Shown here one piece after another: positions 1-9,889 of a DNA stretch of 64,000 nucleotides (position 1 is its first letter; each line of letters begins with the position of its first letter). The position numbers and the translations under genes were made by a program. The notes under the pieces are model-generated. The model was not told the DNA's origin and ran no database searches. It saw nothing but the letters and a program-made list of their open reading frames with translations. This DNA is from Alphaproteobacteria bacterium (GTDB lineage Bacteria; Pseudomonadota; Alphaproteobacteria; Kiloniellales; DSM-21159), in assembly GCA_030433005.1 (NCBI GenBank), contig JAUILQ010000019.1:1-64000 (forward strand), in the 5' to 3' direction.

Positions 1-1
1 C

Positions 2-871
2 CCGCACGCGCCGCGCGAGCTCTGGGCCGCGTTCTGCGGCCGGCTGCGCCGGCGGCTCGCCGAGGTCGGCAAGGAGCGGTTCCTCCTGCTCGGCGAGGTC
101 TTCGACGGGAGCCCCGACGCGCTCGCGAGCTACGCGCAGCTCGACCAGCTCGACTCCGCGTTCGCGTTCGACCTCAAGGGCGAGCTGATCGACGGGGTGA
201 TCCTCGAGGGCCGCGCGCCGGCCACCGCGCTCGGCCCCCTCGGCGGCTACCGCGACCGCTTCCCGTCCTCGCCGCAGCCGAACGGCGTCGGCCTCGACCC
301 GTGGCAGGCGCGCGTCGCGTTCGCCGACAACCACGACGTCTGGCGCGTGCGCGGCGAGCTCGACGACCCCCTCGCCGCCGAGCTCGCGCTCGCGGTGGTC
401 TTCACCGTCGACGCGATCCCGGCGGTCTACTACGGCACCGAGCAGGACCTCGACGGGACCGAGCACCACCTCTCGCGCGAGCCGCTCTGGATCGAGCGCC
501 CGATCTTCGACACCACCGGCCCGACCTTCGCGTTCATCGCGCGCCTCGCCGCGATCCGCCGGCGCTCGCCCGCGCTGCGCTTCGGGTCGGTCACCGTGCG
601 CTTCGCGTCGACGACCGGCGGCCGCGACGAGGAGCCGGCCGAGGACGCGGGGCTGCTCGCCTACGAGCGCGAGCACGAGGGCGAGCGCGTGCTGGTCGTG
701 CTGAACGCCTCGATCGACGAGTCGAGCGCGTCCTTCGGCACCGGCTTCGGCGACGTCGACCGCCTCGCCGACGCGCTCGGCCGCGCGACCGCCCCGTGGG
801 TCGTCGGCGCGCGCGGCGAGCTGTCGATCCGCCTGCCGGGGCGCGCGGTGGTCGTGCTCGAGCCCGAGTGA
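2..871 (+). CDS. GH13 alpha-amylase-family glycosidase, 3' part only
   Basis: The frame is open from base 2 and ends at TGA 869-871, so the N-terminal part lies outside the window. Two GH13 signatures are visible: LLGEVFDG, which holds the general acid/base Glu (conserved region III), and FADNHD, which holds the transition-state-stabilising Asp (region IV). YYGTEQDL follows, then a C-terminal beta domain. Members hydrolyse or transfer alpha-glucans and related sugars; the substrate cannot be inferred from this fragment. Codon use favours CTC, GCG and TCG, whereas the rest of the window favours CTG and GCC. The gene sits directly against a truncated permease gene, with no spacer. It is therefore likely DNA from another organism, through an assembly join or, less likely, real transfer. 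Confidence 0.8.
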   Translation, partial: PHAPRELWAAFCGRLRRRLAEVGKERFLLLGEVFDGSPDALASYAQLDQLDSAFAFDLKGELIDGVILEGRAPATALGPLGGYRDRFPSSPQPNGVGLDPWQARVAFADNHDVWRVRGELDDPLAAELALAVVFTVDAIPAVYYGTEQDLDGTEHHLSREPLWIERPIFDTTGPTFAFIARLAAIRRRSPALRFGSVTVRFASTTGGRDEEPAEDAGLLAYEREHEGERVLVVLNASIDESSASFGTGFGDVDRLADALGRATAPWVVGARGELSIRLPGRAVVVLEPE

Positions 872-874
872 GCG
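866..874. other. Abrupt junction, probable contig chimera
   Basis: The glycosidase stop codon (869-871) and the last recognisable permease codons (Ser-Ala-Leu-Thr, read on the minus strand down to about 868) meet here. To the left, the minus frame continues only as Arg/Pro/Ala-rich shadow translation of the glycosidase. Codon preference changes at the same point. No inverted repeat, integrase or IS end is visible, which favours an assembly join over a mobile element. Confidence 0.65.
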
Positions 875-2378
875 CCGACATCACCGCGAAGTAGAGCAGG
901 AAGAGGTGGCCGCCCATGACGTCGATGCCGAGGTTGGCCATCACCGGCGCGACCAGCACCGCGGCCAGGATGTAGGCGCTCGGCGTCGGCATGCCGAGGC
1001 CGAGCAGCAGGGTCAGCAGGGCGGCCAGGACCAGCGAGACGAACTCGTTGGCGCCGGAGATCAGGAACACCAGGTTGCTGAACTTCGAGGCGAGGCCGGT
1101 CATGGTGATGCCGCCGATGACCAGGCCGGCGGCGGCGCAGGCGCCGGCGACCGAGACCATGCGCAGGCTGGTTTCGGCGAGGATCTCGAAGGCGGCGCGC
1201 GGCGTCAGGCGGGTCGCGCGGCGCAGCATCGAGACGACGATCACCGTCGCCGTGCCGTAGATCGCGGCATAGGTCGGCGTGTAGCCCTCGATCAGCGCCC
1301 AGGTGATGACCGCGAGCGGCACCAGGAACAGGCCGCCTTCGCGCAGCGTCGTGCGCAGCTTGGGGATCAGCCCGGGGTCCATGCCCTCCAGGCCGACGCG
1401 CTCGGCGCGCAGGTGCACCTGCAGGTAGATCGGCAGGTAGTAGAGCAGCGCCGGGATCAGCGCCGCGAAGGCGATCTCGACGTAGGGGATGCCGGTGTAC
1501 TCGGCCATGATGAAGGCGGCCGCGCCCATCACCGGCGGCAGCAGGCTGCCGCCGGTCGAGGCCGCGACCTCGACCGCGCCGGCGAAGGAGGCCTTGTAGC
1601 CCAGGCGCTTCATCATCGGGATGGTGACCGCGCCGGTGGTCACGACGTCGGAGGTCGGGCTGCCCGAGATCGTGCCGTAGAGCGCCGAGGAGATCACCGC
1701 GATCTTGGCCGGCCCGCCGCGCGAGCGGCCGGTCAGCGCCGAGGCCAGGTTGAAGAAGAAGTCGGCGCCGCCGGTCTTGGCCAGGGTCGTGCCGAACAGC
1801 ACGAACAGGAAGGCGTAGGTCGCCGCGACCCGGAGCGGCACGCCGAACAGGCCGTCGGTCGTGAAGACCATGATGTCGAGGAAGTGGCTGACCGAGATCT
1901 CGCCGTGCTGCAGCGGGCCGCTCAGGCGGTCGCCGAACAGGTTGTAGAGGATGAACAGCAGGACGATGACGGTCAGGCCGAGGCCGACGGTGCGCCGCAT
2001 CGCCTCGAGCGACAGCAGGATCACCAGGCAGCCGAAGGTGACGTCCCAGGTGCTCAGCGGATCGAGCAGGGTGATCCGCTCGGCGATCGTGTCCGACTGC
2101 AGCGAGAAGTAGACGCCGGTCGCCGCCGAGAGCGCCGCCAGGCCGAAGTCGGGCAGGCCGATCAGGCGCGCGTCCGAGGTCGCCTTGGGGCCGATCATCA
2201 GGAAGCTGAGGACCAGCATCAGCGACAGGAAGGTGATGGTCAGCGACAGCGCGTCGGTGTGCGACCAGCCGGCCGCGTAGACCGTCCAGACCGCGGTGCC
2301 GGCGGCGAAGACCTTGATCCCGAGCCCGAGCTTGCCGTCCGGGCGACGGCGCACGCCGGTGTCGAAGGCGACAGACAT
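872..2378 (-). CDS. TRAP transporter fused permease (TAXI type), C-terminus missing
   Basis: This is the integral membrane component of a tripartite ATP-independent periplasmic transporter in which the small (4-TM) and large (12-TM) subunits are fused, as is usual for TAXI systems. It has many hydrophobic segments and the large-subunit motifs SGSPTSDVVTTG and ASTGGSLLPPVMGAAAF, with GLGMPTPSAYILAAV near the end. Translation from ATG 2378 gives about 502 residues before homology stops at FAVMSALT; family members continue beyond this point, usually with a Pro-Pro pair next, so the C-terminal part is lost at the 870 junction. The TAXI receptor gene lies upstream on the same strand. Next to a phthalate-type operon, the likely cargo is an aromatic or dicarboxylic acid, which is an inference. 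Confidence 0.85.
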
Positions 2379-2554: not shown

Positions 2555-3553
2555 CTACTGCAGGCCCTTGGCCTTGTAGACCTCGGCCGCGGCGGGGTGA
2601 TAGGGCACCGCCTTGGCGCTGGCCATCAGCTTGGTGTCTAGCGGCGACATCGCCTTGTGCACGCCCTGCATCTGGGCGATCTGCTCGACCAGGGCGGTCG
2701 TCACGTCCTCGACCATCTGCGGATCGGCGTCGTCGCGCACGAAGAGCTGCGCGGAGACCGTCACCGTCAGCACGTCCTTGTCGTTCCACTCGTAGGCCGA
2801 GGCCGGGATGACGTACTCGTTGATCGCCCACTCCTCGGCCACCGCGTCGGCGGTCGCCTGGGTGATCGGGATCAGCGTGACGTCGATCGCCTGGGCCAGC
2901 TGCTGGATCGAGCGGTGGTTGATGAACAGCGAGTTGAGCAGGGCGTCGGCGCGGCGGTCGCGCATCATCTCGCCCTGCTCCTTGGAGGCCGCGAAGGTCA
3001 CGGAGCCGCCCCAGGATTCGATGTCCTCGATGCTGGCGCCGGCGGCCTCGAGCATCGATTCGCCGATCTGGCTGACGACGTTGCCGCGGCGGTTGAGCAG
3101 GATGTTGATCGGGATTTGCTTCGCCGCGATGTCCTCCATGGTCTTGATGCCACGCTCCTCGGCGAAGTCGCGGTTCATGATGAACTGCTCGGGCGCCCAG
3201 GTGTAGAGCACCGCCACGGTGCGCAGGTTCCGGATCGGCCCGCTGAATGGCTCTTCGCCCTTCATCGCCGCGGTCGCCTCGGCGTCGTGGACGATCGCGA
3301 GGTCGCACTTGTCCTGCTGCAGCAGCGCCACGTTGGCGAAGCCGCCGCCGGAGGTCTGGTAGGTCACGGTCGAGCCGGGCTTGTGGGCCTTCAGCGCGCC
3401 GTCGACGCCGGCGCCGAGCAGCGACCAGAGGCCGCCGGGGCTGGCGCCGCAGAGCGTCAGGTTGTAGTCGGCCTTGGCGGAGCCGGGCAGCGCCAGGGCC
3501 GTGCCCGCGGCGAGCGCCAGGGCGGCGAACAGGGACCGTCTGGTAGTGAGCAT
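2555..3553 (-). CDS. TAXI-family TRAP solute-binding protein
   Basis: A periplasmic receptor of 332 residues, the normal length for the family. A Sec signal peptide is clear at residues 1-28 (basic MLTTRRS, a hydrophobic stretch, then an AKA-type cleavage site). The mature protein opens with a short strand and a Gly-rich SPGGLWSLLGAG segment, followed by YQTSGGGFANVALLQ, both characteristic of TAXI receptors. It would deliver ligand to the permease encoded 176 bases downstream. Its promoter region (3554-3777) is shared with the divergent aldolase gene and contains one TTAGA-NN-TCTAA palindrome, so it is probably controlled with the catabolic genes. The ligand is not known; a phthalate-like acid is inferred from context. 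Confidence 0.88.
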   Translation of the reverse strand: MLTTRRSLFAALALAAGTALALPGSAKADYNLTLCGASPGGLWSLLGAGVDGALKAHKPGSTVTYQTSGGGFANVALLQQDKCDLAIVHDAEATAAMKGEEPFSGPIRNLRTVAVLYTWAPEQFIMNRDFAEERGIKTMEDIAAKQIPINILLNRRGNVVSQIGESMLEAAGASIEDIESWGGSVTFAASKEQGEMMRDRRADALLNSLFINHRSIQQLAQAIDVTLIPITQATADAVAEEWAINEYVIPASAYEWNDKDVLTVTVSAQLFVRDDADPQMVEDVTTALVEQIAQMQGVHKAMSPLDTKLMASAKAVPYHPAAAEVYKAKGLQ

Positions 3554-3646
3554 CGCGTGATTTCCTCCCGTTGGTTCCGTCGTCTCTTGGGGCCGCTTGG
3601 CGGCCGTTTTCTTGTCGACCCCGCTGCCTTCTTGCGAAGCATGATC

Positions 3647-3658
3647 TTAGAGGTCTAA
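3647..3658. promoter_or_regulatory. Putative MarR operator, copy 1
   Basis: TTAGAGGTCTAA is a perfect 5+5 inverted repeat with a 2-base spacer, lying in the divergent region between the TAXI receptor and aldolase genes. The same half-sites recur at 6507 and 6551. A MarR-type regulator is encoded inside the cluster, and MarR proteins commonly bind short, nearly perfect palindromes. Confidence 0.65.
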
Positions 3659-3777
3659 TTTTGAATACTGTAGCGAGCCGGCTTGATCCAAGTCAACGAC
3701 AGCTTGGCCGGCGCCGGCGTCGAAGCCTAGGGTCGGCCGGCTGCCGACGGCGCAACCGACTGCAATGAGGAGCGGCC

Positions 3778-4578
3778 ATGTGCGGGGCTGAGAGGGAAGC
3801 GGCGAGCCGGGGCGGGGCCTCGGCGTCGGTCGAGGACCGGGGCACGCCGGCGCCGGCGGCCGACCCGGCGCTGCTCGACGACCTGGTCGCGGCCAACCGG
3901 ATCCTGGCCCACTACGGCGTGGTCGACGCCTTCGGCCACGTCTCGCTGCGCCACGACAAGGACCCCGGGCGCTTCCTGCTGTCGCGCAACATGGCGCCTG
4001 GGCTGGTGACCCGCGAGGACATCGTCGAGTTCGACCTGGAGGGCGCGCCGGTCGACGCGCGCGGCCGTCGCGTCTATCTGGAGCGCTTCCTGCACGGCCA
4101 GATCTTCAAGGCGCGTCCCGACGTCCGGGCGGTGGTGCACAGCCACGCGCCCGACCTGCTGCCCTTCGGCCTGGTCGAGGGCGTCGAGCTCCGGCCGGTC
4201 TGGCACATGGCCGGCTTCCTCGGCGCCTTCGGCCGGGACTCGGTCCCGCTGTTCGAGATTCGCGACAGCGCGGGGCCGGCCAGCGACCTGCTGATCCGCG
4301 ACAACGCGCTGGGCGCCGCGCTGGCGGGCTCGCTGGGCGCGGCACCGGTGGTGCTGATGCGCGGCCACGGCGCGACCCTGGTCGGCGAGTCGCTGCCGGT
4401 CGCGGTGTTCCGCTCGGTCTACACCAAGATGAACGCCGACGTGCTGCTGCGCGCGCTGCCGCTCGGGGCGGTCACCTACCTGACGCCCGGCGAGGCCGAG
4501 GCGACGACCGAGACCAACGGCAGCCAGATCCGGCGCGCCTGGGAGCTGTGGAAGCGCGAGGTCGGGTCGGCGCCATGA
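3778..4578 (+). CDS. Class II aldolase/adducin-family protein (possible hydroxy-aromatic acid decarboxylase)
   Basis: The 266 residues carry the class II aldolase fold signatures: FGHVSLR near residue 50, VVHSHAPD (metal-binding His pair) and LMRGHGATLVG (third His region). Several members act as decarboxylases of dihydroxyphthalate or hydroxybenzoate-type acids rather than aldolases, and such genes occur in phthalate clusters. The ATG is preceded by AGGAG at 3767. Its stop overlaps the start of the MarR gene (ATGA at 4575-4578), so the two are translationally coupled. A second decarboxylase candidate of an unrelated family is present at 8897, so this enzyme may act on another intermediate. 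The substrate is unproven. Confidence 0.75.
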   Translation: MCGAEREAASRGGASASVEDRGTPAPAADPALLDDLVAANRILAHYGVVDAFGHVSLRHDKDPGRFLLSRNMAPGLVTREDIVEFDLEGAPVDARGRRVYLERFLHGQIFKARPDVRAVVHSHAPDLLPFGLVEGVELRPVWHMAGFLGAFGRDSVPLFEIRDSAGPASDLLIRDNALGAALAGSLGAAPVVLMRGHGATLVGESLPVAVFRSVYTKMNADVLLRALPLGAVTYLTPGEAEATTETNGSQIRRAWELWKREVGSAP

Positions 4579-5144
4579 CGGGCAAGCGCGGGCCGGCGAC
4601 GGAGCAGACCACCCAGGCGATCCTCGATCACTGGCGCGAAGCGGTGCCCGACGACCGCATGGCGCATCTGGTGCGCGACGCGGCGCGCGGCCTGACCCGG
4701 GCGCTGCAGCTGCGCCTCGCCGAGCACGGCGTATCCTTCGGCCACTGGTCGTTCCTGCGTATCCTCTGGGCCCGCGACGGCATCACCCAGCGCGATCTCT
4801 CGGTGCAGGCCGGCTTGATGGAGCCCACGACGCACTCGGCGGTGCTGCGCATGGAGGAGCTCGGCTACGTCACGCGCCGCCACCCCGAGGGCAACCGGCG
4901 CAAGCTGCACATCTACCTGACCGAGGAGGGGCGCCGCCTGGAGGGCGTGCTGGTGCCGCTCGCCGAGGAGGTCAACCGCCTGGCGCTCGAAGGCGTCCCG
5001 GCGAGCGACGTCGAGACGACGCGGCGGGTGCTGCTGACGATGATCCAGCAGCTCGCCGACGACGAGGCCGCGGCCCTGGGCCAGGGCCAGCGCATCCCCT
5101 CGACCCGGGCGCTCGGCCGGCGCCGCGCCGGCGACGGCAGCTAA
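4575..5144 (+). CDS. MarR-family transcriptional regulator
   Basis: The 189-residue protein has a winged helix-turn-helix core. The segment ITQRDLSVQAGLMEPTTHSA looks like the recognition region and GYVTRRHPEGNRRK like the wing (about residues 60-120), with helical dimerisation segments on both sides. It starts in a 4-base overlap with the aldolase gene, and its TAA overlaps the convergent Rieske gene stop. Regulators of this family in aromatic clusters usually repress until the substrate or its CoA ester binds. The three TTAGA-NN-TCTAA palindromes in the two promoter regions flanking this gene are the best candidates for its operators. Ligand and sign of regulation are not shown by sequence. 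Confidence 0.88.
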   Translation: MTGKRGPATEQTTQAILDHWREAVPDDRMAHLVRDAARGLTRALQLRLAEHGVSFGHWSFLRILWARDGITQRDLSVQAGLMEPTTHSAVLRMEELGYVTRRHPEGNRRKLHIYLTEEGRRLEGVLVPLAEEVNRLALEGVPASDVETTRRVLLTMIQQLADDEAAALGQGQRIPSTRALGRRRAGDGS

Positions 5145-6424
5145 CTCGCCTTGCGCTCGGCCTCGGCACCGCCGCCGAGCTCGCGCCAGTCGGTGGTCTT
5201 CGGCACGATGCCCTGGTAGCTGGCGATCTCGACCTGCGGCACGCGCGGCTCGGCCGTGCCGATCGCCGGCTTGCCGTCCTTGACCGCCTGCGCGGCCTCG
5301 ACCATCAGCCGCCGGAACTCGGTGATCGCGAGGTCGCTGGCGCCGAGCGTGTCCCGCGTGCGGTCGACGATCGGGCCCATCGAGACCCACATCGCGATGT
5401 CCTGGTTGGGGATGCCCTTGATGCCGGTGAAGTTGCCGGCGGCCATGGCCTGGCGGTCCTGGCCGAAGTCGTTCTCCAGGGTGCGCAGCGTGTTGTACTC
5501 GGCGTCGAGGTCGATGCCGACGCGGGTGTGGTTGAACTTCCGCCAGGTCTCCGTGTCCGGGCAGTCCTGGCCGCCCCAGGCGATGAAGTAGAAGGCCGTG
5601 GTGACGTCGTCGACCGGCACGATGACGCTGGCGACGTTGTAGGAGCTGTTCGGCGGGATCAGCGAGATGAAGGGTGCCACGTAGACCGTCATGCGGACGT
5701 AGTCGTGGGTCGAGGCGTTCTTGATCGGCCGGCGCAGCGCCGCGTAGCGGAAGCCGTAGGGCGTGCGCTCCGTCTGCAGCCGGGGCGACTTGTCCGTCGA
5801 GGGCCTGAGCCAGTTGCTCGAGGTCGCGCCGGCGCTCTCGACCCGCGCCGGCACCATGTCGGAGGAGTGCAGGCTCGAGGAATGCGCCGAATCGATCTGG
5901 CCCTCGGTGATCTGCGCCCAATTGGCCGGCACGCGGATCTTGAGGATCGAGACCTTGGTCTCCTCGTCGGGCGAGAAGGGCGGGCGCTCGAACTCCGGCA
6001 CGGCCTCGGGGTCGCCCATCCAGGCCCAGACGAAGCCGCCGGCCTCGCGGGTCGGATAGGCCTTGTGCTTGACCTTGTCCTTGAGCGGGCTCTCGGCCGG
6101 CTCGGACGACATCTCCAGCACGTTGCCCTCCACGTCCATTTTCCAGCCGTGGTAGAGGCAGCGCAGGCCGCACTCCTCGTTGCGCCCGTAGACCAGGGAG
6201 GCGCGGCGGTGCGGGCAGAGCTCGTCGAGCAGCCCGACCTTGCCCTCGCTGTCGCGGAAGGCGACGAGGTTCTCGCCGAACAGGCGCACGCGGACCGGCT
6301 TGCCGTCGGGCTCCGCGACCTCTTCGGAGAGCAGGGCGGGGACCCAGTGCTGGCGCATCAGCCTGCCCATCGGCGCGTCGCCCTCGACGCGGCAGAGCAG
6401 GTCGTTCTCTTCGGCTGTCAGCAT
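5141..6424 (-). CDS. pht3: Rieske non-heme iron oxygenase, phthalate 4,5-dioxygenase-type alpha subunit
   Basis: The 427-residue oxygenase carries a Rieske [2Fe-2S] motif (C70-x-H72 ... C89-xx-H92) and a mononuclear iron site in NWAQITEGQIDSAHSSSLHS, with H181 and H186 as ligands. Its layout follows the single-component alpha-subunit group that includes phthalate 4,5-dioxygenase and related O-demethylases. It would add both atoms of O2 to the ring to give a cis-dihydrodiol, taking electrons from the reductase encoded divergently at 6655. ATG 6424 is preceded by GGGAGGA. The dehydrogenase and decarboxylase genes nearby fit the pht/oph pathway and support a dihydroxylation role. The exact substrate (ortho-phthalate or a relative) remains an inference. 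Confidence 0.82.
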   Translation of the reverse strand: MLTAEENDLLCRVEGDAPMGRLMRQHWVPALLSEEVAEPDGKPVRVRLFGENLVAFRDSEGKVGLLDELCPHRRASLVYGRNEECGLRCLYHGWKMDVEGNVLEMSSEPAESPLKDKVKHKAYPTREAGGFVWAWMGDPEAVPEFERPPFSPDEETKVSILKIRVPANWAQITEGQIDSAHSSSLHSSDMVPARVESAGATSSNWLRPSTDKSPRLQTERTPYGFRYAALRRPIKNASTHDYVRMTVYVAPFISLIPPNSSYNVASVIVPVDDVTTAFYFIAWGGQDCPDTETWRKFNHTRVGIDLDAEYNTLRTLENDFGQDRQAMAAGNFTGIKGIPNQDIAMWVSMGPIVDRTRDTLGASDLAITEFRRLMVEAAQAVKDGKPAIGTAEPRVPQVEIASYQGIVPKTTDWRELGGGAEAERKAS

Positions 6425-6506
6425 GCGGTCCTCCCAGGCGGTGGACGGGCGCGTCCGGCGCGTTCGTTGCGAAGGCTTGGCGCGCACTCGAGTTCTGTTC
6501 GTGATT

Positions 6507-6518
6507 TTAGATATCTAA
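6507..6518. promoter_or_regulatory. Putative MarR operator, copy 2
   Basis: TTAGATATCTAA is a perfect inverted repeat between the divergent oxygenase and reductase genes. It shares half-sites with copies 1 and 3 and lies 83 bases upstream of the oxygenase start. Its centre is 44 bases from copy 3, about four helical turns, which would let two dimers bind the same DNA face. Confidence 0.7.
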
Positions 6519-6550
6519 GATCATTCCGTCAATCAGCTTGACCTCGCATG

Positions 6551-6562
6551 TTAGAGATCTAA
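6551..6562. promoter_or_regulatory. Putative MarR operator, copy 3
   Basis: TTAGAGATCTAA is a perfect inverted repeat 93 bases upstream of the reductase ATG. Both this copy and copy 2 are followed by GAT, giving an extended shared element (TCTAAGAT). Confidence 0.7.
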
Positions 6563-6654
6563 GATGTTTACCCCATGGGTCCGTGCCGCGCCGGAGAAAT
6601 GCGCGCCGGGATCCTGCGCCCTTTGGACGTGACGAGTGACCGGGAGGCCGGCCG

Positions 6655-7623
6655 ATGGCCGAGGATCCGATCGACGACGCCCTGCGCCCCCTCGTGGTGC
6701 GCAGCAAGACGCAGCTGACCTCCGACATCTGGCAGTTCGAGCTGGTCGATCCCGAGGGCGGCGAGCTGCCGCCTTTCGAGCCCGGCGCCCACGTCACCGT
6801 CGAGACCCCCTCGGGCGCGCGGCGCACCTACTCGATCAGCAACGACCCCGAGGAGCGCGAGCACTACGTCCTCGGCGTCAAGCAGGAGCGCGAGGGCCGC
6901 GGCGGCTCGACCAGCCTGATCGAGCAGGTCGGCGAGGGCGACCGCGTGGCGGTCTCCGAGCCGATCAACCGCTTCCCGCTGGTCGAGGCCGACGAGTACC
7001 TCTTCGTCGCCGGCGGCATCGGCATCACGCCGATCCTCTCGATGCTGCGCCAGGTGCGCCGCGAGGGGCTGGCGAAGTTCAAGCTGGTCTACTGCACGCG
7101 CAGCCCCGAGCTGACGGCCTTTCTCGAGGAGCTGCAGGCGCCCGAGCTCAAGGGCAAGGTCGTGATCCACCACGACGAGGGCGATCCCGACCGGGCCTTC
7201 GACTTCTGGGAGCTCTTCGAGAAGCCGGGCAAGGCCCACGTCTACTGCTGCGGCCCGCGCCCGCTGATGGAGGAGGTCAGGGCGGTCACCGGCCACTGGC
7301 CGGAGAGCCGGATCCACTTCGAGGACTTCGCCAGCGACGTCCAGGCGGTCAAGCCCGACGACAAGGCCTTCACGGTGCGCAACGCCGGGACCGGCGAGAC
7401 GGTCGAGATCCCGGCCGACGCGACGATCCTGGAGACCCTGCGCGCCCGGGGCCATCGCCTGCCCTCGTCCTGCGAGAGCGGCACCTGCGGCTCCTGCAAG
7501 ACCAGGCTGGTCGAGGGCGAGCCGGACCACCGCGACATGGTGCTGACCGACCGGGAGCGCGCCGACCACATCATGATCTGCGTCTCGCGCGCCGCCTCGG
7601 ACGAGCTGGTCCTGGAGTGGTGA
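6655..7623 (+). CDS. pht2: Phthalate dioxygenase reductase-type protein (flavin, NAD, [2Fe-2S])
   Basis: At 322 residues it matches the phthalate dioxygenase reductase class. An N-terminal flavin-binding barrel has the RTYSISN motif, a central NAD domain starts with VAGGIGITPI, and a C-terminal plant-type ferredoxin domain has the cluster ligands in SCESGTCGSCKT and a later ICVS Cys. It passes electrons from NADH through flavin and [2Fe-2S] to the Rieske oxygenase. GGGAGG precedes ATG 6655. It is the first gene of an operon whose next start overlaps its stop by 4 bases. Promoter control by the two palindromes upstream is likely. Confidence 0.87.
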   Translation: MAEDPIDDALRPLVVRSKTQLTSDIWQFELVDPEGGELPPFEPGAHVTVETPSGARRTYSISNDPEEREHYVLGVKQEREGRGGSTSLIEQVGEGDRVAVSEPINRFPLVEADEYLFVAGGIGITPILSMLRQVRREGLAKFKLVYCTRSPELTAFLEELQAPELKGKVVIHHDEGDPDRAFDFWELFEKPGKAHVYCCGPRPLMEEVRAVTGHWPESRIHFEDFASDVQAVKPDDKAFTVRNAGTGETVEIPADATILETLRARGHRLPSSCESGTCGSCKTRLVEGEPDHRDMVLTDRERADHIMICVSRAASDELVLEW

Positions 7624-8831
7624 GCGGCGACGGCAACGCGGGCGAAGCGCGCCGGGTCGGCCTGGGCGTCTGCGGCCTCGGCCGCGCCTTCATGCTGATG
7701 CTGCCGACCTTCCGGCGCGACCAGCGCTTCCGGCTGGTCGCCGCGGCGACGCCGAGCGCCGAGGGCCGGGCGCGCTTCGAGGCCGAGTTCGGCGGGCGCA
7801 GCCACGAGACCCTGGCGGCGCTCTGCGCCGATCCGGACGTCGAGGCGATCTACGTCGCCAGCCCGCACCAGTTCCACGCCGCGCAGGTCGCCGAGGCGGC
7901 GGCCGCCGGCAAGCACCTGCTGGTCGAGAAGCCGCTCGCGGTCAGCCTGGAGGACGGCAAGGCGATGGTCGCCGCGGCGCGCGCTGCCGGCGTCCACCTG
8001 ATCGTCGGGCCGAGCCATTCCTTCGACCGGCCGGTGCTCGAGGCGCGCGCGCTGATCGCCGGCGGCGCGCTCGGCCGGCCGCGCATGATCCAGGCCTTCA
8101 ACTACACCGACTTCCTCTATCGCCCGCGCCGCCCCGAGGAGCTGGTCACCGCCGAGGGCGGCGGCGTCGTGTTCAGCCAGGCTGTGCACCAGATCGACGT
8201 CGTGCGCCTGCTCGCCGGCGGCCGGGCGCGTTCGGTGCGGGCCTATACCGGCGACTGGGACCCGCAACGTCCGACCGAGGGCGCCTATTCCCTGCTGATG
8301 GACTTTGAGGACGGCGCCTTCGCCTCGCTCACCTACTCCGGCTACGGCCGCTTCGACAGCGACGCGTTCTGTGGCTGGGTCGGGGAGCTCGGCCACCGCA
8401 AGTCGCCCGAGGGCTACGGCAAGGCGCGCCGCATGCTGGCGGACGTCGAGGGCGCCGAGGCCGAGGCGGCGCTGAAGCGCACCCGCACCTACGGCGGCGC
8501 GGGCGCCGGGGGCGCCGAGCTGCCCTTGCCGGAGACCCACGAGCACTTCGGGCCGGTCATCGTCTCCTGCGAGCAGGCCGACCTGCGGCTGCTGCCCGAC
8601 CGGCTGGTGATCTACGGCGACGAGGCCGTCGAGGAGCGCCCGCTCCCGGCGCCGGAGATCCCGCGCCGAGAGGTCATGGACGAGCTCTGGGCGGCCGTCG
8701 TCGAGAACCGCCCGCCGGCGCACAGCGGCGCCTGGGGCCTGGCCTCGCTGGAGGTCTGCCACGCCATCCTGCGCTCGGCCGCCGAGCGCCGCGAGATCGC
8801 GCTCAGCCTGCAGGTGCCCTATGAGGGGTGA
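7620..8831 (+). CDS. pht4: Gfo/Idh/MocA oxidoreductase, probable cis-dihydrodiol dehydrogenase of phthalate degradation
   Basis: The protein has 403 residues. Its N-terminal Rossmann fold starts with GLGVCGLGRAF, and the family signature EKPLAVS follows near residue 105, then the Gfo/Idh/MocA C-terminal sheet domain. The 4,5-dihydro-4,5-dihydroxyphthalate dehydrogenase (Pht4/OphB) belongs to this family and re-aromatises the cis-dihydrodiol using NAD. Position between the oxygenase reductase and the dihydroxyphthalate decarboxylase homologue supports that assignment. It starts at GTG 7620 inside the reductase stop (GTGA), so translation is coupled. Alone, the family assignment would not identify the substrate. 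Confidence 0.75.
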   Translation: MSGDGNAGEARRVGLGVCGLGRAFMLMLPTFRRDQRFRLVAAATPSAEGRARFEAEFGGRSHETLAALCADPDVEAIYVASPHQFHAAQVAEAAAAGKHLLVEKPLAVSLEDGKAMVAAARAAGVHLIVGPSHSFDRPVLEARALIAGGALGRPRMIQAFNYTDFLYRPRRPEELVTAEGGGVVFSQAVHQIDVVRLLAGGRARSVRAYTGDWDPQRPTEGAYSLLMDFEDGAFASLTYSGYGRFDSDAFCGWVGELGHRKSPEGYGKARRMLADVEGAEAEAALKRTRTYGGAGAGGAELPLPETHEHFGPVIVSCEQADLRLLPDRLVIYGDEAVEERPLPAPEIPRREVMDELWAAVVENRPPAHSGAWGLASLEVCHAILRSAAERREIALSLQVPYEG

Positions 8832-8896: not shown

Positions 8897-9889
8897 TTGT
8901 CCAAGCTCCGGCTCTCGGTCGCCATCGGCGACTACGACCGCAACCGCCCGCTGATCGACGGCCGCGTGCAGATCGACGGCGTCGACCCGGTGTTCATGAC
9001 GCTGTCGCCGGAGGAGATCTTCTTCCGCGCCTTCCGGCACCGGGAGTTCGACATCTGCGAGCTGTCGTTCAGCTCCTACCTGGTGACGGTCGACAAGGGC
9101 GATCCGGCCTACGTCGCGATCCCGGCCTTCCTCAGCCGGGCCTTCCGCCACACCTCGATCTACGTGCGCGACGACAAGGGCATCGAGGATCCCGCCGACC
9201 TCAAGGGCAAGCGCATCGGCCTCGCCGAGTACCAGCTGACCGCCAACGTCTGGGCGCGCGCCCTGCTGGAGGACGACCACGGCGTCAGGCCCTCGGACGT
9301 CACCTGGGTGCGCGGCGGCATGGAGACCCCTGGCCGGCCCGAGAAGATCCCGCTCCAGCTGCCGCCGGAGATCCGCCTGGAGCAGGCGCCGGAGGGCAAG
9401 TCGCTGAACGCGCTGCTTGCGGCCGGCGAGATCGACGGCTTCATGGGCCCGCGCACGCTGTCCTGCTTCGACGAGGGCCACCCGAAGGTGCGTCGCCTGT
9501 TCCGCGACCCGACCGCCGCGGCCTCCGACTACTACCGGCGCACCGGCGTCTTCCCGGTCATGCACCTGCTCGGCGTCCGGCGCGAGATCGCCGAGGCCCA
9601 GCCCTGGCTGCCGGCGGCGCTGCTCAAGGCCTTCGGCCAGTCGAAGACGGCGGCGCTGAAGCTGCTCGCCGACACCTCGGCGACCAAGGTCACGCTGCCC
9701 TTCGTCGAGGAGCAGCTGGCCGGCGCCCGGGCGCTGCTCGGCGAGGACTTCTGGTCCTACGGCGTCGGCGCCAACCGCACGACGCTGGAGACCTTCCTCG
9801 ACCACCACCACCGCCAGGGCCTGTCGAGCCGCCGCCTGAGCCTGGAGGAGGTCTTCCACCCGGCGACCCTGGAGGCGCACTCGATCTGA
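8897..9889 (+). CDS. pht5: 4,5-dihydroxyphthalate decarboxylase-like protein
   Basis: The 330-residue protein has the periplasmic-binding-protein-like fold used by the cytoplasmic decarboxylase Pht5/OphC, with no signal peptide. Recognisable segments are IGDYDRNRPLIDGRVQIDG near the start, ICELSFSSYL, and GKRIGLAEYQLTANVWARALL. It would convert 4,5-dihydroxyphthalate to protocatechuate. The start is taken as TTG 8897 because GGGAGGA lies just upstream at 8887 and because the family opens at this point. A GTG at 8828 would add a 23-residue basic extension without homology. No protocatechuate ring-cleavage gene is present in the window, so that step must be encoded elsewhere. Confidence 0.83.
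   Translation: MSKLRLSVAIGDYDRNRPLIDGRVQIDGVDPVFMTLSPEEIFFRAFRHREFDICELSFSSYLVTVDKGDPAYVAIPAFLSRAFRHTSIYVRDDKGIEDPADLKGKRIGLAEYQLTANVWARALLEDDHGVRPSDVTWVRGGMETPGRPEKIPLQLPPEIRLEQAPEGKSLNALLAAGEIDGFMGPRTLSCFDEGHPKVRRLFRDPTAAASDYYRRTGVFPVMHLLGVRREIAEAQPWLPAALLKAFGQSKTAALKLLADTSATKVTLPFVEEQLAGARALLGEDFWSYGVGANRTTLETFLDHHHRQGLSSRRLSLEEVFHPATLEAHSI

What the first reader, a model, noticed from the sequence alone, without database searches (positions are those of the whole stretch)
3640..6570. Three perfect TTAGA-NN-TCTAA palindromes define a likely MarR regulon
Identical half-sites occur at 3647, 6507 and 6551, only in the two promoter regions of the phthalate-type cluster. The MarR gene is in the middle. 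The two sites in the oxygenase/reductase region are 44 bases apart, near four helix turns. This predicts that the transporter, the aldolase-MarR pair, the oxygenase and the reductase operon are controlled together and that the regulator controls itself.
Basis: partly seen in the sequence, partly recalled or inferred. Interest (0 to 1): 0.7.

Follow-up and report, generated by a model that had tools for sequence, protein, structure and literature searches.

The report
Conserved MarR operators of phthalate regulon
Three short DNA palindromes in front of phthalate-degradation genes are very probably the binding sites of the neighbouring MarR-type repressor, because the same sites recur in front of the same genes in dozens of distantly related bacteria and were missing in three genomes that keep these genes without that repressor.

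Summary
TTAGA-NN-TCTAA occurs exactly at 3647, 6507 and 6551 and nowhere else in the window (0 expected). The 5.3-Mb genome has only two more exact sites; a same-genus genome has three in all, all in the orthologous cluster. The motif is a phylogenetic footprint: within 300 bp upstream of the oxygenase (43 of 56) and reductase (48 of 51) genes of relatives from Alpha-, Beta- and Gammaproteobacteria, against a mean below 0.5 for permuted palindromes. It tracks the MarR gene: of 13 further genomes with the dioxygenase, all 8 with a close MarR have the site, and 3 with the same divergent operons but no MarR do not. In the window each site overlaps the spacer and -10 of a sigma-70-like promoter, predicting repression by occlusion of RNA polymerase. 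The oxygenase closely matches a proven phthalate 4,5-dioxygenase and keeps its substrate residues, so the inducer is probably phthalate or an early intermediate (untested). The 'four helix turns' detail is not conserved; each site serves its own promoter. The regulon may extend to a second TRAP operon and, in this genome only, to pcaIJF. A new member of a known kind; no operator for a phthalate MarR was found in the papers searched.

The parts
3647..3658 (.). Operator O1, TTAGAGGTCTAA, between the divergent TAXI transporter and aldolase-MarR operons
   Evidence: same site in Tistlia L014 and in L015, L018, L019, L022
6507..6518 (.). Operator O2, TTAGATATCTAA, at the oxygenase promoter
6551..6562 (.). 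Operator O3, TTAGAGATCTAA, at the reductase-operon promoter
6504..6532 (-). Predicted oxygenase promoter: -35 TTGACG (6532-6527), 17-bp spacer, -10 TAAAAT (6509-6504), overlapped by O2
   Evidence: consensus match, inferred
6538..6565 (+). Predicted reductase promoter: -35 TTGACC (6538-6543), 16-bp spacer, -10 TAAGAT (6560-6565), overlapped by O3
   Evidence: TTG 13-15 nt before the operator in 34 of 49 loci
3632..3659 (+). Predicted aldolase-MarR promoter: -35 TTGCGA, 16-bp spacer, -10 TCTAAT, overlapped by O1
   Evidence: weaker match, inferred
4575..5144 (+). MarR-family regulator, 189 aa; its ATG overlaps the aldolase stop codon
   Evidence: Pfam PF01047; MarR fold Z 15-17
3778..4578 (+). 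Class II aldolase-family protein, weakly like 3,4-dihydroxyphthalate decarboxylase PhtC (below its cut-off)
2555..3553 (-). TAXI-family TRAP solute-binding protein
   Evidence: TIGR02122 above cut-off
868..2378 (-). TRAP fused permease, 3' part missing because of a contig join near 867
   Evidence: TIGR02123 matched only to position 486 of 615
5141..6424 (-). Rieske oxygenase, phthalate 4,5-dioxygenase type
   Evidence: PF19301 and PF00355; 7FJL/7V25 match E 6e-194 with S182, R207, R244, I256 kept
6655..7623 (+). Oxygenase reductase (flavin/NAD plus C-terminal 2Fe-2S)
7620..8831 (+). Gfo/Idh/MocA dehydrogenase, probable dihydrodiol dehydrogenase (Pht4-like)
   Evidence: role by cluster context
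8897..9889 (+). 4,5-dihydroxyphthalate decarboxylase-like protein (Pht5-like)
   Evidence: the gene in the corresponding Polaromonas cluster is annotated so

Best explanation
The MarR protein encoded at 4575-5144 is the local repressor of an ortho-phthalate catabolic regulon, and the three palindromes are its operators. As a dimer it sits on TTAGA-NN-TCTAA, which lies in the spacer and -10 of the promoters for the oxygenase, the reductase operon and aldolase-MarR, and so blocks RNA polymerase; the TAXI-TRAP genes share operator O1. MarR is in the aldolase operon and so limits its own synthesis. Phthalate or an early intermediate probably releases it, inducing uptake and the steps to protocatechuate. 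Shown: the sites, their rarity, their conserved placement and their co-occurrence with MarR. Inferred: binding, repression, promoter positions. Untested: the inducer.
For: Exact sites, none expected. Motif within 300 bp upstream of the oxygenase in 43 of 56 and of the reductase in 48 of 51 loci, permuted controls mean below 0.5. Three sites in the whole same-genus genome, all in the cluster. Relatives without the orthologue are depleted. Of 13 other dioxygenase genomes, 8 of 8 with a MarR of 45% identity or more have the motif upstream of the oxygenase; 3 with the same divergent pht operons and no MarR have none, although a congener (G154) with MarR has it (Fisher p 0.007 for 8/8 against 1/5). 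Operators lie upstream of the MarR transcription unit in several different gene orders. Promoter overlap. MarR fold. Dioxygenase identity and substrate residues (PMC10511449, PMC12445078).
Against: No binding or expression data. Genome G193 has an exact site at the oxygenase with only a distant MarR (31%) on another contig. Of the 59 MarR loci that also hold an oxygenase match, only 35 showed a site close upstream of the inferred MarR transcription unit, by a rough gene caller. The 13-genome test is small and the genomes are not fully independent.
Confidence: 0.85

Rival explanations
1. The sites are operators, but of another regulator encoded elsewhere, for example one of the paralogous MarR proteins or a GntR protein.
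For: The genome encodes a second MarR relative at 38% identity, and the second TRAP operon with a near-match site has a GntR gene beside it.
Against: The motif tracks the linked MarR across genomes, also within one genus. The 3.4-kb loci around the paralogues carry no site.
Confidence: 0.08
2. MarR binds the sites but acts mainly as an activator, or needs two sites in phase for cooperative or looped repression.
For: 44 bp is near four turns, and spacings in related lineages cluster near 101-103 bp.
Against: Spacing ranges from 43 to 209 bp over 25 two-site loci; many oxygenase or reductase upstream regions show a single site; sites overlap the predicted -10, where an activator would be unusual.
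Confidence: 0.06
3. The palindromes are chance or have another role such as a terminator or a repeat element.
For: One of the five genomic sites (C109:3708) lies in a convergent gap with no obvious target.
Against: Zero expected by shuffling, conserved placement in three classes, and permuted palindromes almost never found.
Confidence: 0.01

Closest known systems
SlyA-type MarR operators (TTAGCAAGCTAA; TTAN6TAA; PMC5797941)
   Same: Twelve-bp palindrome with TTAG...CTAA ends bound by a winged-helix MarR-fold dimer.
   Different: Here A and T are preferred inside the half-sites (TTAGA/TCTAA) and the targets are phthalate genes; the SlyA work read concerns antagonism of H-NS.
MarR repressors of aromatic catabolism reviewed in PMC5487221
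   Same: Repressor linked to the catabolic genes it controls, palindromic sites in promoters, ligand expected to relieve repression.
   Different: No characterised member for the phthalate 4,5-dioxygenase pathway was found in the library searched.
phtR, an annotated MarR gene beside phthalate genes in Sphingobium yanoikuyae SHJ (PMC6051330), and a MarR gene beside pht genes in Thalassospira (PMC9604089)
   Same: MarR gene next to pht genes, with a TRAP transporter in Thalassospira.
   Different: Named from annotation; in the passages read no operator or binding was described.
Phthalate dioxygenase of Comamonas testosteroni KF1 (PDB 7V25)
   Same: Oxygenase aligned over residues 1-415 with S182, R207, R244 and I256 kept.
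   Different: Only sequence compared; activity untested here.

Membership tests
MarR family | Winged helix-turn-helix of the MarR type | tested here: met
   PF01047 33.4 bits against cut-off 24.6; PF12802 also above
MarR family | MarR fold with N- and C-terminal dimerisation helices | tested here: met
   AlphaFold model pLDDT 85, Z 15-17 to many MarR structures
MarR family | Homodimer binding a palindrome in or near its own promoter | not testable with these tools
   Palindrome present upstream of the aldolase-MarR operon; dimer and binding not measured
HpaR (homoprotocatechuate regulator) | Equivalog model score above cut-off | tested here: not met
   39.4 bits against 121.2
SlyA-type operator class | TTAN6TAA consensus of the DNA site | tested here: met
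   All three sites fit; this refers to the DNA site only
Phthalate 4,5-dioxygenase (PDO) | Phthalate-contacting residues S182, R207, R244 and the I256 position | tested here: met
   Identical in the alignment to 7FJL/7V25; roles from PMC10511449 and PMC12445078
Phthalate 4,5-dioxygenase (PDO) | Converts phthalate to the cis-4,5-dihydrodiol | not testable with these tools
   Needs an enzyme assay
PhtC 3,4-dihydroxyphthalate decarboxylase (aldolase gene) | Equivalog model score above cut-off | tested here: not met
   83.6 bits against 200

The most novel reading that the evidence does not exclude
One MarR-operator pair defines a phthalate regulon shared by Alpha-, Beta- and Gammaproteobacteria in which the code TTAG-N4-CTAA stays fixed while gene order and transporter type (TAXI-TRAP, DctPQM-TRAP, ABC, perhaps MFS) are swapped, and which in some lineages recruits unlinked operons such as the 389-aa protein plus DctPQM operon and pcaIJF.
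Probability: 0.5. Interest if true: 0.5.

Novelty: new member of a known kind. Interest (0 to 1): 0.4.

Why it matters
It gives a specific, testable repressor-operator pair for ortho-phthalate catabolism. The 2026 review read here describes regulators of the other isomers (TphR, IphR) and calls the ortho-phthalate clusters a resource for future biosensors (PMC13040137). It also shows a case where operator and regulator can be matched by presence and absence across genomes.

Tried and rejected
Phased pairing of O2 and O3: rejected as a conserved feature because spacing varies from 43 to 209 bp; a weak phase clustering (Rayleigh p about 0.03) comes partly from related lineages and is inconclusive. 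pcaIJF as a conserved target: the site lies just upstream of pcaI in this genome only, not in Tistlia or the ten other genomes with a pcaF match, so it is a lead, not a conserved member. Literature: TTAGATATCTAA was found in one unrelated cyanobacterial paper; searches for a phthalate MarR operator gave no characterised case, but most subscription papers are not in the library. The 389-aa protein beside the second TRAP operon matched no Pfam, NCBIfam or PDB sequence.

Full report
Observation. TTAGANNTCTAA is found at 3647, 6507 and 6551 and nowhere else in the window, even with 2 mismatches. Shuffles preserving dinucleotides give none. The window is the start of contig C37 of a 5.3-Mb genome; that genome holds five exact sites and none of the reversed control.

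Genes. The sites lie in two divergent gaps: between a TAXI-type TRAP binding protein and a class II aldolase-MarR operon, and between a Rieske oxygenase and a reductase, Gfo/Idh dehydrogenase, Pht5-like decarboxylase operon. The MarR start codon overlaps the aldolase stop. The oxygenase aligns along residues 1-415 with the Comamonas testosteroni KF1 phthalate dioxygenase (PDB 7FJL/7V25, E 6e-194), and the residues that hold phthalate there, S182, R207 and R244, and also I256, are all identical (PMC10511449, PMC12445078). Isophthalate dioxygenase has V and L in place of S182 and R207 (PMC12445078). The cluster is therefore most likely for ortho-phthalate to protocatechuate.

Footprint. Eighty loci with MarR relatives (53-87% identical) were fetched. 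In 95 loci the motif occurs 71 times, while five other palindromes occur 0 to 2 times. In the 300 bp upstream of the oxygenase it is exact in 26 and within one mismatch in 43 of 56 loci; upstream of the reductase in 30 and 48 of 51; upstream of TAXI in 5 of 7 and of the aldolase in 5 of 8. Twenty-nine palindromes made from permuted half-sites give no exact match and a mean below 0.5 with one mismatch. The loci come from Alpha-, Beta- and Gammaproteobacteria. The motif keeps its place when gene order changes, for example with the oxygenase divergent from reductase-dehydrogenase-MarR in Hyphomicrobiales, or with a separate marR gene with its own TTCGATATCTAA site in Caballeronia. The symmetrised consensus is [AC]TTAG[A>C]NN[T>G]CTAA[GT].

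Specificity. In the same-genus genome (Tistlia consotensis) the only three exact sites in 6.9 Mb are those of the orthologous cluster. In 56 relatives without the orthologue there are 17 sites against 112 of the reversed control. As a further test I searched 385 genomes of the class for the oxygenase: 13 besides the window had it. All eight with a MarR of 45% identity or more have the motif (at most one mismatch) upstream of the oxygenase. Three genomes with the same divergent pht operons but no MarR match at E 1e-15 have none in 18-19 kb, although a congener with MarR has it. A fourth genome with a distant MarR (41%) also lacks it; one genome (G193) has the site with only a distant MarR on another contig. 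Fisher p is 0.007 for this grouping, a cut chosen after seeing the data; grouping by any MarR hit gives 0.014. The 3.4-kb loci of more distant MarR paralogues carry no site.

Mechanism. In the window O2 overlaps the spacer and -10 of TTGACG-17-TAAAAT (oxygenase), O3 those of TTGACC-16-TAAGAT (reductase), and O1 those of TTGCGA-16-TCTAAT (aldolase-MarR). Over the loci, TTG lies 13 to 15 bases before the reductase-proximal site in 34 of 49. This geometry predicts repression by occlusion. In several Hyphomicrobiales the oxygenase-proximal site appears to lie just downstream of the likely -10 instead, which would also block transcription (read by eye). The MarR model has the MarR fold (pLDDT 85; Z 15-17). 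Ligand release is inferred from the family (PMC5487221) and was not tested.

Wider regulon. An operon of a 389-aa protein of unknown family and a DctPQM TRAP transporter has TTAGATATCTTA just upstream in this genome and in Tistlia, and exact sites in three gammaproteobacterial genomes; a more distant homologue in G007, which has no close MarR orthologue, has none. In this genome alone an exact site lies about 35 bp upstream of pcaI in a pcaIJF operon, whose thiolase passes the pcaF model. Elsewhere the site precedes ABC-type and other transporter genes (names by eye).

Comparison. The operator fits the SlyA-type TTAN6TAA class (PMC5797941), and the circuit is like other MarR repressors of aromatic catabolism. 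MarR genes next to pht genes had been annotated before (PMC6051330, PMC9604089). I found no described operator, but only open-licence papers could be searched. Verdict: a new, well-supported member of a known kind.

Noticed in passing
window 1-867: Alpha-amylase-like fragment (GC 76%) fused to the TRAP permease gene; the missing permease end lies at the very end of contig C84 (47,181), so the first 867 bases are probably an assembly mis-join.
   Followed up: yes
L094:8652-8663 (G000:C97:35651): Exact site about 35 bp upstream of pcaI in a pcaIJF operon; not conserved in Tistlia.
   Followed up: partly
L139:3974-3985 (G000:C17): TTAGATATCTTA upstream of a 389-aa protein without a known family and a DctPQM TRAP operon; exact sites at the same place in three gammaproteobacterial genomes.
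   Followed up: partly
L095:3708-3719 (G000:C109): Exact site in a convergent gap between a PrpB-like and a RadC-like gene, with no obvious target.
   Followed up: no
window 5070-5130: MarR has a conserved C-terminal tail (RIPSTREL-like) after the last dimer helix, predicted as an extra helix at lower confidence.
   Followed up: no
window 3778-4578: Class II aldolase gene is present only in some of these clusters, with a Pht5-like decarboxylase also present; its role is unclear.
   Followed up: no
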